From NCBI RefSeq assembly GCF_900167205.1, contig NZ_FUWW01000019.1, positions 1 to 32,771 on the forward strand: a stretch of DNA of 32,771 nt, read 5' to 3'. The notes under the pieces were generated by a model, which searched no databases, had not been told where the DNA came from, and saw only the letters and a list, made by a program, of their open reading frames with translations. The stretch comes from Eubacterium coprostanoligenes (GTDB lineage: Bacteria > Bacillota > Clostridia > Oscillospirales > Acutalibacteraceae). Made by a program: the position numbers and the translations under genes. This document shows positions 880 to 30,043 of the stretch, piece by piece; within the stretch, counting starts at the first letter, position 1; each line of letters starts with the position of its first letter.

Positions 880-1061
880 AAAAGCAAAAAGAGCGTAGCC
901 GAAGCTACGCTCAAAAAACACTTGCTTCAAACTTTCTGCGACGAAAATTTCATAGTCTGGAAAACCCAAGCGTATGACAAAGAAGCGTGTGTTTTTATCA
1001 AAAGATAAAAAGCCACGCTCGGGTTTTCGAAACTTAAAAATACTATAAAATTTTCGTCGCA
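880..1061 (-). ncRNA. rod-shaped structured RNA upstream of the SLOG gene
   Basis: A sigma-A promoter (1067-1096) places the transcript start at about 1060, exactly at the base of a long hairpin. Tier 1 pairs 1042-1060 with 938-956 (18 of 19 positions). Tier 2 pairs 1015-1027 with 961-973 (12 of 13). The tip pairs 1004-1011 with 992-999 around an AAAA loop. A perfect intrinsic terminator follows at 891-912. A 63-codon open frame covers the same stretch, but it begins inside the stem, ends in the terminator and lacks a ribosome site, so I read this as RNA. It could be a stand-alone small RNA, a leader/attenuator for the SLOG gene, or a palindromic repeat family. Confidence 0.65.
891..912 (-). 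terminator. intrinsic terminator with UUCG loop
   Basis: Minus strand: perfect 9-bp stem GAGCGTAGC/GCTACGCTC around a TTCG loop, followed by TTTTTGCTTTT. It lies about 26 bp before the SLOG start codon, between promoter and gene. Confidence 0.85.
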
Positions 1062-22200: not shown

Positions 22201-22341
22201 TTGAGAAGAAAGATTTTGTTCAGTATTTCCCAAATCACGAATATAGTTAATTTTATCGTGAAAGCCTTGTCCGTTAAAAACTTTTACAACTGCATCAACT
22301 GCGTCAGTTTGGTATTGTTGTATTTTGAAATTAAACTTCAC
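19225..22341 (-). CDS. res: type III restriction enzyme, Res (helicase/nuclease) subunit
   Basis: 1038 residues. SF2 helicase motifs: Walker A METGTGKTYVYIKT (residues ~105-118), motif Ia VVVPSIAIREGV, motif II ILDEPQKMGG (the DEPQ form typical of type III Res), motif III NYSATHAKHH, and motif VI KRQEVGRGLRLCVN. The C-terminal endonuclease is visible as YSPDWAIAFYEG followed by FIAETKGTMESLELR (PD...ExK core). Res cuts about 25 bp from head-to-head Mod sites after ATP use. The start is GTG 22341, eleven bases inside the end of the four-helix-bundle gene, with GGGAGG upstream. Intact. Confidence 0.95.
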   Translation of the reverse strand: MKFNFKIQQYQTDAVDAVVKVFNGQGFHDKINYIRDLGNTEQNLSSQVSFDENEIMDDTGYKNELVELSDEQLLQNIQNLQSQNNIKLSPSLVKDLGRCSLDIEMETGTGKTYVYIKTMFELNKKYGWSKFIVVVPSIAIREGVKKSFEITADHFMEHYGKKARFFIYNSSNLNQLDNFSSSSGINVMIINTQAFATSLNEEKNVEGRKGDAAARIIYSRRDEFGSRRPIDVIKANRPIIILDEPQKMGGAVTQKALKNFNPLFTLNYSATHAKHHNLIYVLDALDAFNKKLVKKIEVKGFEVKNFRGTDSYLYLEQIVLSSKKPPMAKIELEIGYNKSINRETRLLGVDDNLYYKSEEMEQYKGYTISEIDPLRGTVTFTNGEVIKAGDVVGDVSEKDMRRIQIRETILSHFEKEEKLFNMGIKCLSLFFIDEVAKYRQYDENGDEVLGEYGVMFEEEYLNALNEYTTLLDTPYQRYLKSTCSDVSAVHKGYFSIDKKTGHSIDSKLKRGSEFSDDISAYDLILKNKERLLSFDEPTRFIFSHSALREGWDNPNVFQICTLKHSDSNTAKRQEVGRGLRLCVNQNGNRMDVESCGEAVHDINTLTVIASESYKTFVTDLQSDIKTVLYDRPTVATSEYFKGKCINVDGVSTIIDDDTANAIEFYLIQNGYVDMKRKVTDKYRQDIKSGTVAELPDELKPMADGIHTLIQAVYDDSVLKDMFTDGHETKVRDNPLNENFAKKEFQALWKQINHKYAYTVEFDSKELIEKAITHIDKKLFVSELQYTTTIGRQKDKMNEYEVERGASFAGEKTRTKTLKHVETSQIKYDLIGKVAEGTTLTRKTVSAILQGIRMDKIHMFKNNPEEFISKVTRLINEQKATMIVEHISYDTIEGEYDSNIFTAEKNTQSFDKAFLAKKAIQDYVFTDGSAEQSVERRFAQDLDRADEVCVYAKLPRTFQIPTPVGNYSPDWAIAFYEGTVKHIFFIAETKGTMESLELRPIEQAKISCAKKLFNEMSTSKVVYHDVDSYQSLLNIMNSI

Positions 22342-22738
22342 CTTCGGTCGTACCTCCCTTCGTTAGTTTGGAGTGTGCAGAGTTGAGTTTGGAATTCATT
22401 GTCTTTGTAGTAGAAGACATCATTTTTCTTAACTCTTCACAATCATCTTTCATAGACTTGTACTCAATTTCAGATAAGTAATCAGTTTCAAACAACAAGT
22501 CTAACCAATAAATTGTTTCTGCCGACTCTTTTAATGCAATATAAATTTTTGAAAGAAAATCTTTTTCGCTTATGGCACATTCGCTTTCAGCTATATTAGC
22601 GCCAATACTTGTCCCACTGCGTAATAATTGCTTCGACAAAACATATTCTTTCTTTTCGTCACACAAATACTTGTAAAGCCTAACAATTCTCACAGCAAAT
22701 TTCTTACTTTTATATTTAACTGTTTTTTCTCTGCCCAT
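22331..22738 (-). CDS. four-helix-bundle protein (S23 / intervening-sequence family)
   Basis: About 135 residues from ATG 22738 (MGREKTVKYKSKKFAVRIVR). Family hallmarks are clear: SKQLLRSGTSIGANIAESEC, then SEKDFLSKIYIALKESAETI and LSEIEYKSMKDDCEELRKMM. This is the small basic four-helix bundle first known from ORFs in 23S rRNA intervening sequences and related to Avd of diversity-generating retroelements. It forms pentameric barrels that may bind nucleic acid. Here it sits between mod and res, overlapping res by 11 bp. Its borders are rich in repeats of the type ACTCCA/ACACTCC (22740-22760 and around 22365-22380), which suggests a mobile gene inserted into the operon. Confidence 0.88.
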   Translation of the reverse strand: MGREKTVKYKSKKFAVRIVRLYKYLCDEKKEYVLSKQLLRSGTSIGANIAESECAISEKDFLSKIYIALKESAETIYWLDLLFETDYLSEIEYKSMKDDCEELRKMMSSTTKTMNSKLNSAHSKLTKGGTTEGEV

Positions 22739-22769
22739 AACTTCACACTCCACTCTCAAATCTCCACAC

Positions 22770-25935: not shown

Positions 25936-26991
25936 TTAATCAATATGATTTTTTATAATTTTCTGACCGTTAAGTATAAAATTGATGATAAAGTTTTTAT
26001 CAACACTGATTGGAATTTTTTCTAAACAAGTTTCAATCATATCTTTTGTGATAGCAGGAATATCAAGTGACTTAAACATTTGCTTTGCCTGTAAATTATT
26101 ATCAATAAATTCAAAAAAGAATTTCATCAATCCGTCCTTTTCACGAGTAACATCGGACGGATAGCCATTTGCTATTAAAGCAATGTTATTATCATAATTA
26201 GGTGCAAGTGAAATAATATCACCACTGCTGATATCACGAATCAAGCCGTAATTATTTGTATGTCGGTCCATATTATAGCAAACGGTATCAAGATAAATAA
26301 GTTTTAAATAATCAGCTGCTATATCTTTTGAAATCGAATTAAAATAATTAAAATTATCGTTATAATCTTCATTATCACCCATAACAGATGAAATCGGCTC
26401 AAAATTTACTTTACCATCTGTAAAATCTTTAGTGCGAATATATCCGTCTGCATATTGATATTCCGCCATATTAAAACCGATACATTTTCCAAGCTGATAT
26501 ATAAAAAGCTCTGAAAATATTTGATTATCATTACCGCTTTTATACATCCACCAGCTACCGTTTTCAAGTCGCCAACACTTTTCAAAGCTACCGATATTGG
26601 TAAGTTCGGGAGTCCTTGACGGTTTTTTATTAAAGCTATCCGGGTCACCCTTAAGAGCAAGTTTGTCAAAATCATTTTCGTTAAATTTAACATCAGCCCA
26701 GGTAAGATTTTCACCATCAGGCTTAAACCAATAATTATCGGTAATTGTTACTGCATTAACTGCCAGAGCAGTATTAGCGTCATCACGATTTGCAAGTCGC
26801 AATACCTTTTTTAAAAGTCTTGAATTAGCACGATGAGAATCAATGGCTCTGCTTTCAAGCCAAGAGGTAAAATCCTTGTTATTCACAAAGTGAATCGGTG
26901 CAAATTTTTTATCAACGCTTATAACTTCACCGTTTTCAATCCGTACAACTTCCCTGTCGCCCGACATTATATAACCGTTAGAATAAACCAC
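25936..26991 (-). CDS. stand-alone HipA-like protein kinase
   Basis: 351 residues from GTG 26991, with GGGAGG eight bases upstream. The kinase core has the HipA catalytic loop TVCYNMDRHTNNYGLIRD (D242, R243, H244, N247) and the metal-binding SLAPNYDNNIAL (D267). NGSWWMYKSGNDNQIFSELF carries the likely ATP-lysine (about residue 151) and helix-C acid. It lacks the N-terminal subdomain 1 and the HipB repressor partner of classic hipBA. That is the layout of stand-alone HipA/CtkA-like Ser/Thr kinases. Substrate unknown. It has its own promoter and terminator, so it is monocistronic. Confidence 0.85.
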   Translation of the reverse strand: MVYSNGYIMSGDREVVRIENGEVISVDKKFAPIHFVNNKDFTSWLESRAIDSHRANSRLLKKVLRLANRDDANTALAVNAVTITDNYWFKPDGENLTWADVKFNENDFDKLALKGDPDSFNKKPSRTPELTNIGSFEKCWRLENGSWWMYKSGNDNQIFSELFIYQLGKCIGFNMAEYQYADGYIRTKDFTDGKVNFEPISSVMGDNEDYNDNFNYFNSISKDIAADYLKLIYLDTVCYNMDRHTNNYGLIRDISSGDIISLAPNYDNNIALIANGYPSDVTREKDGLMKFFFEFIDNNLQAKQMFKSLDIPAITKDMIETCLEKIPISVDKNFIINFILNGQKIIKNHID

Positions 26992-27051: not shown

Positions 27052-27128
27052 TAAATCATATATTTATTTTAAAAAATATATAGCATTTAAATTCACATAT
27101 TTAATAAATTTTAAAAAGTAAATTTATA

Positions 27129-27203
27129 ACGCCCTTAATCTTTAGGGCAATTTTTTCTATTAAGGCTTATGGGGCTGAAAGCTATATTTAAAGGGTGTTT
27201 TTT
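27129..27203 (+). terminator. two alternative hairpins, each ending in a T-run
   Basis: The strand 27131-27135 pairs with 27144-27148 (GCCCT/AGGGC), followed by TTTTTTC. The overlapping strand 27129-27136 can instead pair with 27191-27198 (8 bp, one wobble), followed by TTTTTT at 27198-27203. No plus-strand gene precedes them. They may end an unseen small RNA or act as an attenuator. Confidence 0.4.
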
Positions 27204-27216
27204 AAGTTTTAAACAA

Positions 27217-27300
27217 GTCAAAAACAAGATGCAGAAAAATCGTTTTCGTTTTTGACAAAAAAATTTTGGATAATCGTCAAAAACTATGTACAGTTTTTCG
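27217..27300. repeat. inverted/direct copies of GTCAAAAAC, operator-like
   Basis: GTCAAAAAC occurs at 27217-27225 and 27276-27284. Its exact complement GTTTTTGAC is at 27248-27256, with a degenerate copy AGTTTTTCG at 27292-27300. The array ends just before the first TGTTATAAT promoter. It resembles binding sites for a repressor, excisionase or integrase arm. Confidence 0.5.
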
Positions 27301-27315
27301 TTTTAATTTTATTTT

Positions 27316-27324
27316 TGTTATAAT
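27316..27324 (+). promoter_or_regulatory. extended -10 promoter P1 (small RNA)
   Basis: TGTTATAAT with the TGn extension and no good -35. Seven bases after it the 19-bp stem of the small RNA begins. Confidence 0.6.
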
Positions 27325-27330
27325 TATATT

Positions 27331-27452
27331 GAAGGGTTATGGGTTTGCTGTAAAGCTCATAAAAAGTCTACCGGACTATAAACATAAGTTAACAATCAAC
27401 GACATTCTGAAAATAAAATAGCAAACTCATAGCCTTTCATTTTTTGTTTTTT
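27331..27452 (+). ncRNA. ~120-nt small RNA closed by a 19-bp stem
   Basis: The predicted start (27331) is the first base of a helix in which 27331-27349 pairs completely with 27420-27438 (16 Watson-Crick and three G-U pairs). The right arm is followed immediately by ATTTTTTGTTTTTT (27439-27452), an intrinsic stop. Inside lies a small hairpin AGTC/GACT (27365-27377) and a ~40-nt AT-rich single strand that could pair with a target. No open frame with a ribosome site. It could be a regulatory RNA of the element or a companion of the large RNA just downstream; class unknown. Confidence 0.65.
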
Positions 27453-27460
27453 AAAAAATT

Positions 27461-27469
27461 TGTTATAAC
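27461..27469 (+). promoter_or_regulatory. extended -10 promoter P2 (large RNA)
   Basis: TGTTATAAC in the same AAAATTTG context as P3 (28040). The predicted start near 27477 lies just before the first hairpin TGGAC/GTCCA. Confidence 0.55.
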
Positions 27470-27476
27470 TATTATA

Positions 27477-28025
27477 TACATGGACAAATGTCCATTCTTG
27501 CTTGGTAAGAAAGATCAAGAAAGTACTGCAGCTATTCCTTATAAATACTGTAGCTACCACTCTTAACATTAGAGTATAAATAATGTGGCGTGGCAAGCCT
27601 AAATAGAAAGTTCAGCTGGCTTAAAGTTGTTACCTAATGATGCTGACAACAATAAGCACTGGGGGTATAAGTGGGCCTTTGACCTTATAGTCTAAGTTAA
27701 ATTTTAACAAATAAGTTAAATTTAATATGACAAACTGGCTCGGAACGACAATGGAAACCTATTGCCGGCGTATAGGGTAAGTCGGGGAGAATATGCATTA
27801 ATCGGAAACGATTATCGGGTAGATGGTAGTGGACGCCTGACAAGCATATCTGTTGAAATACAGAGTCTAAGCATCAGAATACGGATACATATACGGTGAC
27901 GGGGAGTCGCTTTTGGATACCGTGTAAAGGTAAGACTTCTTTTTCTTCGATAGGAGAAGTCTGCCCGAAGCCGTTGCAAACCAGCTCTGAAAAGTCATTT
28001 TTGCACAAAGCTTTAAGATTTTTTT
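27477..28025 (+). ncRNA. large, highly structured non-coding RNA (ROOL-like candidate)
   Basis: About 530 nt with a base composition clearly richer in G/C than its flanks and no translated frame. Local helices: TGGAC/GTCCA (27481-27494), ACTCT/AGAGT (27559-27575), GTTGT/ACAAC (27626-27650), TAATCG-GAAA-CGATTA (27799-27814, a GNRA tetraloop), CTGT/ACAG (27850-27863), ACGGT/ACCGT (27893-27923), GACTTCT/AGAAGTC (27934-27961). Longer pairs: GGCGT/ACGCC (27767-27837) and ATATGC/GCATAT (27791-27849), which interlock like a pseudoknot. A T-run at 28019-28025 may end it. Size, ornate folding and place next to an integrase and tRNA fit the ROOL class of giant RNAs, but I cannot test the match. GOLLD or a new class are alternatives; a group II intron, tmRNA or RNase P do not fit. 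Confidence 0.7.
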
Positions 28026-28039
28026 GAAAATTAAAAATT

Positions 28040-28048
28040 TGTTATAAT
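28040..28048 (+). promoter_or_regulatory. extended -10 promoter P3 (excisionase-integrase)
   Basis: TGTTATAAT. The ~130-nt leader begins with a hairpin (AAGG 28057-28060 with CCTT 28080-28083 and inner TTACAT/ATGTAA). Confidence 0.6.
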
Positions 28049-28185
28049 TATTACATAAGGTTATTTACATATATGTAAGCCTTAATATAAAAATCATTAT
28101 GTATAAAGGAGCGTGATACTCATCAAAAATTATTAATCTTAAAAACATATTCGTTAATGTATAGCAAAGAAAGGAGGCTTAATAA

Positions 28186-28527
28186 ATGCTAAATATTAAT
28201 AACGAATTTAACATAAGCGAAAACAATTATTATATTGATACCATAAACAAACTAAACGATTGTTGCTCAAAGCTTTTGCAAATAATAAATGAATTAGAAA
28301 CTAATACAAACAGTTCAGACATTAAACTGCTAAGCAAAGAGGATGTAAAACGCATTACAGGTTGGTCATCAAGAAGAGTATCACAGACTTTTGACAGTCC
28401 TGAACTAAAAGATAAAGTTATTTATATCGGTAAAAAGATGCAAATTGAAGAAAGCGACTTTAGACGATATTTACAATCAGGTCCTAAAAAAGACAGCAGT
28501 ACATATTGGCTAAAACAAATAAATTAA
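28186..28527 (+). CDS. excisionase-like small DNA-binding protein
   Basis: 113 residues, ATG 28186 with AAAGGAGG eight bases upstream. The N-terminal ~45 residues form a helix (IDTINKLNDCCSKLLQIINE) likely to dimerise. The C-terminal half is a MerR/Xis-type winged helix: LLSKEDVKRITGWSSRRVSQ, then VIYIGKKMQIEESDFRRYLQ. Proteins of this type bind next to att sites, direct excision and often repress the integrase promoter. Directly upstream of the integrase gene, on the same strand and behind the same promoter. Confidence 0.8.
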   Translation: MLNINNEFNISENNYYIDTINKLNDCCSKLLQIINELETNTNSSDIKLLSKEDVKRITGWSSRRVSQTFDSPELKDKVIYIGKKMQIEESDFRRYLQSGPKKDSSTYWLKQIN

Positions 28528-28588: not shown

Positions 28589-29728
28589 ATGACATATGAC
28601 AAGAAAAGACATCAATTTACATATAGAATTACATATTTAGATCATATTGATAATAAGAAAAAGAGAAAAACATTTTACGGACAAAGTGAAAAAATCTGCA
28701 AAAACAAAGCAGATGAATTTTTAAAAATCAAAGCCCGTAATCTTTCAAAAGAGAAAGAAGAAATTACTGTTGCAGACATTTTAGAGGATTTTTATACACT
28801 AAAGCACAATCTTAATCGTATTACAGATTCAACATATTTGAGGAAAAAGTACACATTGGATATTTACAGAAAAAGTAATATAGCAAAAATTCCTATAGTA
28901 AAAATGAATGTAAATGATATTAAAATGTTTTTGAGTAGCCAAAAGAACAAATCAAACAGTGATATTGATAAGATATATTCTTCTTTAAATGCAGCTTTTG
29001 AATTGGCTATCTCTGAAAATATCATTGATAAAAATCCCTTAAATGATAAAACGGTTTTAAAGCCTAAATCAAATAAGCCGGACAAAAAAGTAAGAGGGTT
29101 TACTCAAGAGGAACAGCAAAAATTTCTCGAAACGCTTAAAGACTATAAACCAATAGCTAACAAAAATTATTACAAGCCTCAGTTTCTTATTTCACTAATG
29201 ACAGGAATGAGGATGGGAGAAATAAACGCACTGACTTTAAATGACATTGATTTGGACAAAAAGGAAATTCATATTTACAAAACCATAACTAAAGACACAA
29301 ACGGTAAAGCAAAATTAGGAACTGCAACTAAAACGATTGCAGGACAACGAATTATACCGATTCCTGAAAGTTTAATTCCGATACTAAAAAATGTTATAGA
29401 TAATTATGTACCAAATGAAAACAATCTATTATTTGTAAATAAAAGCAACGGCGGAGTTATATCAACAGGTCAAGTAAATTGTGCATTTAAACGATTGTGT
29501 GAAAAGGCCAATCTTGAGGTTGACGGTCAGCATATGTTAAGACACTCTTATGCAACAAGATGTATTGAAGCCGGGATTTCTGCACCGGTGCTAAAAACAT
29601 ATTTAGGTCATACAGATATATCTACAACTATCAACACATATGTTGACATATTTAACAAATTCCAAAAAGAAGAATTAAAGAAATATGAAGAGTATATGAA
29701 AGATAATTTTGATATGAGTTCTATTTAG
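28589..29728 (+). CDS. int: tyrosine-family integrase
   Basis: 379 residues from ATG 28589. An AP2-like arm-binding segment at the start (YDKKRHQFTYRITYLDHIDN) is followed by a SAM-like core-binding domain (residues ~60-150). The catalytic domain has R208 (LMTGMRMGEINAL), H315 and R318 (GQHMLRHSYATR), H341 (YLGHTDI) and nucleophile Y351 (TINTYVD), so the active set is complete. The frame is open up to 28541, adding INKKKKKASNNEGS-type residues common at the start of relatives. AAAGGA (28531-28536) is well placed for ATA 28544 or ATT 28541, so the real start may be non-AUG. Lies 240 bp from the 3' end of tRNA-Trp. Confidence 0.94.
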   Translation: MTYDKKRHQFTYRITYLDHIDNKKKRKTFYGQSEKICKNKADEFLKIKARNLSKEKEEITVADILEDFYTLKHNLNRITDSTYLRKKYTLDIYRKSNIAKIPIVKMNVNDIKMFLSSQKNKSNSDIDKIYSSLNAAFELAISENIIDKNPLNDKTVLKPKSNKPDKKVRGFTQEEQQKFLETLKDYKPIANKNYYKPQFLISLMTGMRMGEINALTLNDIDLDKKEIHIYKTITKDTNGKAKLGTATKTIAGQRIIPIPESLIPILKNVIDNYVPNENNLLFVNKSNGGVISTGQVNCAFKRLCEKANLEVDGQHMLRHSYATRCIEAGISAPVLKTYLGHTDISTTINTYVDIFNKFQKEELKKYEEYMKDNFDMSSI

Positions 29729-29785: not shown

Positions 29786-29812
29786 TTTCCACCTATGCTA
29801 AAAGTAAAATAA

Positions 29813-29834
29813 ATGAGGGCAAAAATGAGGGCAA
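29813..29834. repeat. tandem ATGAGGGCAA pair near the att end
   Basis: ATGAGGGCAA at 29813-29822 and 29825-29834, period 12 bp. Paired short direct repeats between an integrase gene and its tRNA target are typical arm-type integrase sites; that reading is inference. Confidence 0.5.
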
Positions 29835-29961: not shown

Positions 29962-29967
29962 AAAAAT

Positions 29968-30043
29968 TGGCAGGGGCAGAAGGACTTGAACCCTCGGCAC
30001 GCGGTTTTGGAGACCGCTGCTCTACCAACTGAGCTATACCCCT
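29968..30043 (-). tRNA. tRNA-Trp (CCA)
   Basis: Full cloverleaf: 7-bp acceptor stem (AGGGGTA with TGCCCCT), D arm GCTCAGTTGGTAGAGC, anticodon loop CTCCAAA giving CCA, T arm with GGTTCAAGTC, discriminator G and encoded CCA. Its 3' end faces the integrase gene 240 bp away, so it is the likely integration target. I could not find a second copy of its 3' end in the window. Confidence 0.95.

What the first reader, a model, noticed from the sequence alone, without database searches (positions are those of the whole stretch)
27477..28025. Large ornate non-coding RNA next to an integrase
Seen: ~530 nt without a translated frame, G/C-rich relative to its surroundings, with at least seven local helices including a 6-bp stem capped by a GAAA tetraloop, and interlocking long-range pairs (27767-27771 with 27833-27837; 27791-27796 with 27844-27849). 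It is preceded by an extended -10 promoter and followed by a T-run. Known: ROOL and GOLLD are giant RNAs of 500-800 nt found in mobile elements, often near tRNA genes. Inference: this is a ROOL-type RNA or a new class of similar design.
Basis: partly seen in the sequence, partly recalled or inferred. Interest (0 to 1): 0.85.

Follow-up and report, generated by a model that had tools for sequence, protein, structure and literature searches.

The report
Orphan structured RNA candidate beside integrase
A mobile DNA island that carries two restriction systems holds a roughly 550-base stretch, just before its integrase genes, that looks like a folded RNA of no known family; no relative was found, so it remains a candidate.

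Summary
A long, non-coding stretch, richer in G/C than its flanks and led by an extended -10 promoter, is there at 27477-28025. It matches no Rfam 15 family, ROOL included, while the same scan recovers a genuine ROOL at 130 bits. No homologue was found by blastn, single-sequence covariance models or motif scans, so covariation cannot be tested. The stretch lies at the int/xis end of a 31.7-kb element in a tRNA-Trp gene that carries type I and type III restriction-modification. Best reading: an orphan stand-alone structured RNA gene (0.42); rivals: a leader of xis-int, a non-functional remnant, a DNA-level site. Better supported is a second RNA just upstream: 27331-27438, a 21-bp closed hairpin with its own promoter motif and T-run. 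A relative elsewhere in this genome has 6 of 13 closing pairs changed on both sides and a 22-nt loop core unchanged.

The parts
27477..28025 (+). RNA-2: the candidate large structured RNA; ends approximate (start from the -10 position, end from the T-run)
   Evidence: composition, promoter motif, fold, no coding frame
27459..27472 (+). extended -10 promoter of RNA-2 (TTTGTTATAACTAT)
   Evidence: the AAAAAATTTGTTAYAAYTAYTAT context recurs after the RNA-1 relative on contig C14; not listed by the two-hexamer scan
27480..27495 (+). 5' hairpin AUGGAC-AAAU-GUCCAU of RNA-2
   Evidence: pair probability 0.95
27526..27553 (+). hairpin CUGCAG/CUGUAG with inner UAUU/AAUA in the 5' domain of RNA-2
   Evidence: pair probabilities 0.92 and 0.83
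27611..27991 (+). predicted long-range closing helix 27611-27619 with 27981-27991 (UUCAGCUGG/CCAGcuCUGAA)
   Evidence: probabilities 0.58-0.72 when 27600-27992 is folded alone; not among the helices listed for the full-length fold
27736..27973 (+). 3' domain of RNA-2, closed by 27736-27743 with 27965-27973 (UGGCUCGG/CCGAAGCCG)
   Evidence: probabilities 0.47-0.77 depending on the ends folded; composition
27791..27849 (+). predicted three-way junction: AUAUGC/GCAUAU enclosing the UAAUCG-GAAA-CGAUUA hairpin and UCGGGU/GCCUGA
   Evidence: probabilities 0.84-0.89 when 27764-27870 is folded alone; in the full-length fold only the GAAA hairpin stays
27933..27962 (+). long hairpin AGACUUCUUUU/AGGAGAAGUCU at the 3' end of the 3' domain
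   Evidence: pair probability 0.87-0.94
27331..27438 (+). RNA-1: small hairpin RNA directly upstream, with its own extended -10 (27314-27327) and T-run; relatives elsewhere in the same genome
   Evidence: fold z -5.9, 0 of 200 shuffles; relative at G000:C14:107565-107648; 6 of 13 closing pairs changed on both sides
27120..27313 (.). A/T-rich upstream stretch with TTTTTGAC/GTCAAAAA inverted repeats, partly shared with both C14 copies
   Evidence: alignment A3
28038..28051 (+). third copy of the promoter motif, ahead of the xis-like gene
28186..28527 (+). small excisionase-like gene (113 aa)
   Evidence: PHROG 66, excisionase/regulator, E 1.6e-4; no Pfam match; PADLOC type I specificity model at E 8.2e-5
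28589..29728 (+). tyrosine integrase (379 aa)
   Evidence: Pfam PF00589, E 9.9e-29
29811..29834 (+). two direct repeats AAATGAGGGCAA (probable integrase arm sites), with near-copies inside the other end of the element
29967..29989 (.). attR core: 3' end of tRNA-Trp (29968-30043, minus strand); 22 of 23 bases repeated at G000:C31:25228-25250
25936..26991 (-). HipA-like protein, divergent neighbour of RNA-1
   Evidence: Pfam PF07804, E 8.8e-7, 29.2 bits, just under its cut-off of 30.5

Best explanation
RNA-2 (about 27477-28025) is a stand-alone, multi-domain structured non-coding RNA gene. It is the second of three same-strand transcription units (RNA-1, RNA-2, xis-int) at the integrase end of a 31.7-kb tRNA-Trp-inserted element that carries type I and type III restriction-modification. 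Shown: position, lack of a convincing coding frame, composition, promoter motif, element boundaries. Predicted only: a 5' domain, a long-range closure and a G/C-rich 3' domain. Inferred, with no direct evidence: it is transcribed from its own extended -10 promoter to about the T-run, folds on its own, and acts in trans in maintenance or excision control of the element. A guide or template role seems less likely because no reverse transcriptase or RNA-guided nuclease was recognised among the 30 element proteins scanned; repeat arrays were not searched for.
For: A 1,194-nt intergenic stretch between hipA-like and xis holds a G/C island: 47% in 27733-27990 against 21-22% in the flanks, with G 28% over C 19% on the plus strand. 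Long G/C-rich intergenic regions are where new structured RNA classes have been found (PMC8723152, start of abstract seen in the listing). The extended -10 motif occurs three times in the window, once before each unit, 0.19 expected. The 3' half is as stable as only 4 of 256 background windows. No protein-like content was found in the frames scanned. The adjacent RNA-1 shares the layout and has compensatory changes, so this intergenic stretch probably holds at least one RNA gene.
Against: No homologue in any search, so no covariation. blastn: 7 of 80 genus genomes and 3 of 398 family genomes (own included in both) with short chance-like matches. 3' covariance model: 4 of 394 order genomes at E <= 0.1 (own included) and 1 of 391 class genomes at E <= 0.01 (own only). 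5' model: 2 of 300 family genomes at E <= 0.01 (own included). Fold z-scores are weak, ordinary for the window, and slightly better on the minus strand (whole -2.87 against -1.9; 5' half -1.62 against -1.46; 3' half -2.57 against -1.27). G+C is not unusual if genes are counted (8% of windows). No terminator hairpin was found ahead of the T-run, and the two-hexamer promoter scan does not list the promoter. The long-range helices are only moderately probable and change with the ends folded. In the C14 relative of RNA-1 the same downstream slot holds a short leader and a protein gene, not RNA-2.
Confidence: 0.42

Rival explanations
1. RNA-2 is a long structured 5' leader of the xis-int message: transcription passes the T-run and the leader controls xis and integrase expression by attenuation or processing.
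For: Same strand, directly upstream of xis-int; no intrinsic terminator hairpin found at the T-run. In the C14 copy the corresponding slot is a short leader with hairpin-forming sequence and T-runs, ahead of a 241-aa gene.
Against: A third copy of the promoter motif lies between RNA-2 and xis (28038-28051), giving xis-int a possible start of its own. The strongest structure lies about 200-450 nt before the xis start.
Confidence: 0.2
2. RNA-2 is not a functional RNA: a decayed or recombined remnant of different base composition whose helices are those expected of any such sequence.
For: No relative found in the searches made; fold z modest and ordinary for the window; interlocked helices at the chance level; a related island on C14 shows a deletion between RNA-1 and integrase.
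Against: No protein or DNA parent was found. Absolute stability is near the top of the window. The compositional island starts behind a promoter motif and ends before the next one.
Confidence: 0.23
3. The stretch works as DNA: a transfer origin, replication origin or recombination site of the element, with hairpins formed in single-stranded DNA.
For: Integrase-proximal position in an element in which no transfer or replication gene was recognised among the proteins scanned; the minus strand folds relative to shuffles at least as well as the plus strand.
Against: No similar site elsewhere in the same genome apart from the promoter match, so an origin that mimics a resident helper is unlikely. 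G exceeds C on one strand and a promoter motif points into the stretch.
Confidence: 0.1
4. It is a very divergent ROOL or GOLLD that the Rfam models miss.
For: Length near the 574-position ROOL model, mobile-element setting.
Against: No match to these families at E up to 10 (ROOL) while a genuine ROOL scores 130 bits.
Confidence: 0.03

Closest known systems
ROOL RNA (Rfam RF03087)
   Same: Length class (model 574 positions), setting in a mobile element, no protein product.
   Different: No sequence or covariance match. [quoted passage not shown] here the tRNA is the insertion site.
GOLLD and OLE RNAs
   Same: Large structured bacterial RNAs; for GOLLD a mobile-element setting (recalled).
   Different: No Rfam match at E up to 10; OLE is usually chromosomal (recalled).
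raiA motif RNA (ModT)
   Same: Structured RNA of Bacillota, C. difficile included (PMC11706538, start of abstract in the listing).
   Different: Shorter and chromosomal (recalled); no match.
pemK RNA (Rfam RF02913)
   Same: Structured RNA found within 8 kb of related integrases in elements of the same genus (4 of 10 loci scanned).
   Different: No match in the window; those loci show nothing like RNA-2 by nhmmer or by the R1 and R2 models.

Membership tests
ROOL (RF03087) | Match to the ROOL covariance model at or above its cut-off (99.1 bits) | tested here: not met
   positive control 130.4 bits
ROOL (RF03087) | Conserved helices and pseudoknot supported by covariation | tested here: inconclusive
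   no alignment to the ROOL model was reported and there are no homologues for covariation of its own
ROOL (RF03087) | Assembly into an RNA-only octameric cage (PMC12286853) | not testable with these tools
   needs cryo-EM or mass photometry
GOLLD | Match to the GOLLD covariance model | tested here: not met
   whole Rfam 15 scan; no positive control run for this family
OLE | Match to the OLE covariance model | tested here: not met
   no positive control run for this family
raiA | Match to the raiA covariance model | tested here: not met
   no positive control run for this family
Large structured non-coding RNA (general kind) | Long intergenic stretch without coding frame and with G+C raised over the intergenic flanks | tested here: met
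   G+C is not unusual if genes are counted (8% of windows)
Large structured non-coding RNA (general kind) | Folding stability beyond shuffled sequence | tested here: inconclusive
   z -1.9 to -2.0, halves ordinary for the window; a true ROOL gives -1.28
Large structured non-coding RNA (general kind) | Compensatory base changes among homologues | tested here: inconclusive
   no homologue found
Large structured non-coding RNA (general kind) | Discrete transcript | not testable with these tools
   no RNA-seq available

The most novel reading that the evidence does not exclude
RNA-2 is the first seen member of a new class of large ornate RNA carried by integrative defence islands, made together with a small hairpin RNA (RNA-1), and, like GOLLD and ROOL, able to assemble without protein.
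Probability: 0.12. Interest if true: 0.8.

Novelty: new variant of a known kind. Interest (0 to 1): 0.37.

Why it matters
If transcribed and structured, it would extend the list of large RNAs of unknown function from phages and megaplasmids to a restriction-carrying integrative island with known element ends. RNA-1, which has compensatory changes between two copies, gives a concrete handle: relatives of RNA-1 can be used to find further islands and to see whether RNA-2 travels with them.

Tried and rejected
ROOL, GOLLD, OLE and raiA: rejected on the Rfam scans (ROOL), with a working positive control for ROOL only.

Homologues by DNA: phages and plasmids, blastn with short words, no match. Genus and family genomes gave short matches to the promoter, to A/T-rich arms, or (L005, L013) inside open reading frames. 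Single-sequence covariance models R1 (3' domain) and R2 (5' domain) gave at most 22.1 bits against 318.1 and 316.4 for the sequence itself. The best R1 hit, L174, lies inside an open reading frame. L175, L176, the G006 hit (14.8 bits) and the G162 hit (21.4 bits over 76 nt, between open reading frames) were not followed further.

Motif scans of viral contigs (0, 12, 103, 120, 107 and 36 stretches) and of genome contigs (2) gave nothing that nhmmer with RNA-2 supports on 451 loci (best E 3.2).

Homologues by neighbourhood: integrase and xis queries in viral contigs confirmed no relative. The xis query found 2 of 200 family genomes, own included. 21 integrase matches outside the own genome, 37-45% identical, were found in the genus; upstream stretches of 20 of them were fetched and hold no RNA-2 (blastn gave two short matches, E 0.025 and 0.49, not supported by nhmmer). 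Integrase relatives listed in plasmid and phage records are 26-32% identical; one phage record in the 60-80% band was not among the ten listed and was not looked at. The G/C-rich stretches in L036, L042 and L043 looked promising; pemK RNA lies inside all three (L036 after turning it round), and they show nothing like RNA-2.

Protein-coding remnant: an open 57-aa frame (27726-27896 +) looked repeat-like but matched nothing in Pfam or PHROGs, and phages and plasmids only at E 3 or worse.

Papers: listings (two returned none). PMC12286853: outline with abstract, sections 6 and 8 read. PMC5643018: passages only. PMC8723152 and PMC11706538: start of abstract in listings. No paper describing this sequence was met in those five searches; that is not proof of absence.

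Full report
What was checked. The stretch 27477-28025 has no convincing coding frame: one 66-aa ORF on the minus strand overlaps its 5' part, and stop-to-stop frames reach 57 aa plus and 65 aa minus in 27440-28185. Seven of the eleven frames of 35 aa or more gave no Pfam match and PHROGs matches only at E 0.11 and 0.18. It is G/C-rich for its place: 39% overall and 47% in 27733-27990, with 21-22% in the intergenic flanks; against all 549-nt windows, genes included, it is in the top 8%. It follows an extended -10 motif that appears three times in the window and nowhere else there: before RNA-1, before RNA-2 and before xis (27314, 27459, 28038; 0.19 expected). A scan that asks for both sigma-70 hexamers does not list it.

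Structure. The full-length fold is -142.2 kcal/mol, z -2.0 with 2 of 100 shuffles as stable, or -1.9 with 1 of 60. The minus strand folds less stably but with the better z (-2.87), so z does not point to a strand. The halves score -1.46 and -1.27, ordinary for this window, whose 256 background windows have mean -0.73 and lower quartile -1.54. A true ROOL, taken as control, gives -1.28 with 8 of 60 shuffles as stable, so a weak z does not speak against an RNA of this kind either. The 3' half (-74.0 kcal/mol) is reached by 4 of 256 background windows: the 5S/tRNA cluster and the region 769-1024, each on both strands. Probable helices in the full-length fold are the 5' hairpin, 27526-27553, 27626-27650, 27696-27726, 27749-27764, 27799-27814 and 27933-27962. 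The long-range helices 27736-27743/27965-27973 and 27611-27619/27981-27991 are moderately probable and depend on the ends folded.

Both complementary pairs are present. Such interlocked pairs are common in shuffled sequence: 2 in the real 3' half, mean 5.6 in shuffles, 238 of 300 shuffles with at least 2; for the whole stretch 28 against 31.4, 82 of 150. They are not evidence of a pseudoknot.

Known families. Rfam 15 at gathering thresholds finds only 5S and four tRNAs in the window. At E up to 10 the stretch gives four sub-threshold hits to unrelated families. The ROOL model finds nothing in the whole genome; that search also rang in none of its control genomes. Control: cmscan finds the pMP118 ROOL at 130.4 bits.

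Homologues. None was found: see Tried and rejected for each search with its counts. The samples are a small part of known diversity and metagenome contigs could not be scanned, so "orphan" means orphan in these searches only.

Setting. The window is contig C35 of a 1.82-Mb genome in 35 contigs. The 3' end of tRNA-Trp is repeated, 22 of 23 bases, at C31:25228-25250. AAATGAGGGCAA-type repeats lie inside both ends. The end of C31 overlaps the start of C35 by 138 bases, so the element runs from C31:25228 to C35:29989, 31,742 bp by subtraction. It carries type I restriction-modification (HsdR, HsdS, HsdM), type III Mod and Res, a HipA-like protein, phosphoesterases, a NYN-domain protein, a MazE-like gene, an excisionase-like gene and a tyrosine integrase. 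No conjugation, phage structural or replication gene was recognised among the 30 element proteins scanned (29 with Pfam, HsdM with PADLOC only; 85 mechanical ORFs of 60 aa or more were listed in the window).

RNA-1. Directly upstream, 27331-27438 folds into one long hairpin (21 closing pairs, z -5.9, 0 of 200 shuffles; the minus strand of 27332-27437 scores -2.76) with its own extended -10 motif and a T-run after the stem. A blastn search of the 80 genus genomes matched 2 of 80 at E <= 0.01: the own genome with two further places on contig C14, and one short match in G067. At C14:107.5k a complete relative (fold z -2.5, 2 of 200 shuffles as stable) keeps ACCGGACTATAAACATAAGTTA unchanged. In its 13 shared closing pairs, 6 are changed on both sides, 5 on one side and 2 not at all, all 13 being standard pairs (the two folds were compared in the register given by folding each alone, and MAFFT did not align this stem). 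Two sequences are few, but the pattern is that of a conserved structure. At C14:79k the first half of a third copy is joined to the last 66 or so codons of an integrase 79% identical to the window's, next to another HipA-like gene. These C14 copies lie in an island with Eco57I-, Schlafen- and Shedu-type genes. RNA-2 is in neither copy; at 107.5k the second promoter is followed by a short leader and a 241-aa gene without Pfam match.

How it most likely works. Shown: an element module with three same-type promoter motifs, of which two precede non-coding stretches. Inferred: RNA-1 and RNA-2 are separate transcripts, and RNA-2 folds into a multi-domain RNA acting in trans for the element. A leader role for xis-int is the main functional rival; a non-functional stretch is about as likely as that. 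These are judgements, not measurements.

Verdict. The most solid new item is RNA-1.

Noticed in passing
window 27331-27438; L002 1371-1477 (G000:C14); L456 from about 1475: RNA-1: a hairpin RNA family with its own promoter motif, a conserved 22-nt loop core and compensatory changes in the closing stem; three copies in this genome, one truncated by a deletion into an integrase gene.
   Followed up: partly
window 1-29989 with G000:C31:25228-27118: A complete 31.7-kb integrative element in tRNA-Trp with both type I and type III restriction-modification and no recognised transfer genes; its two contigs overlap by 138 bases.
   Followed up: partly
L042 5623-6225, L043 583-1079, L036 5716-6213 (all with the integrase on the plus strand; L036 turned round): Non-coding G/C-rich stretches of 500-600 nt upstream of related integrases in other genomes of the genus, alike by eye; Rfam calls pemK RNA over only about 100-200 nt of each.
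   Followed up: no
window 937-1061: Inverted repeat, 20-nt arms 95% complementary with 85 nt between, in a window of z about -4.3 on both strands, near the left part of the element.
   Followed up: no
window 22331-22759: A 23S rRNA intervening-sequence-type protein gene lies between the type III Mod and Res genes.
   Followed up: no
window 25936-26991 and L457 7763-9046: HipA-like proteins (23% identical to each other) lie divergently beside RNA-1 copies in two of three cases; HipB-like partners were not searched for.
   Followed up: partly
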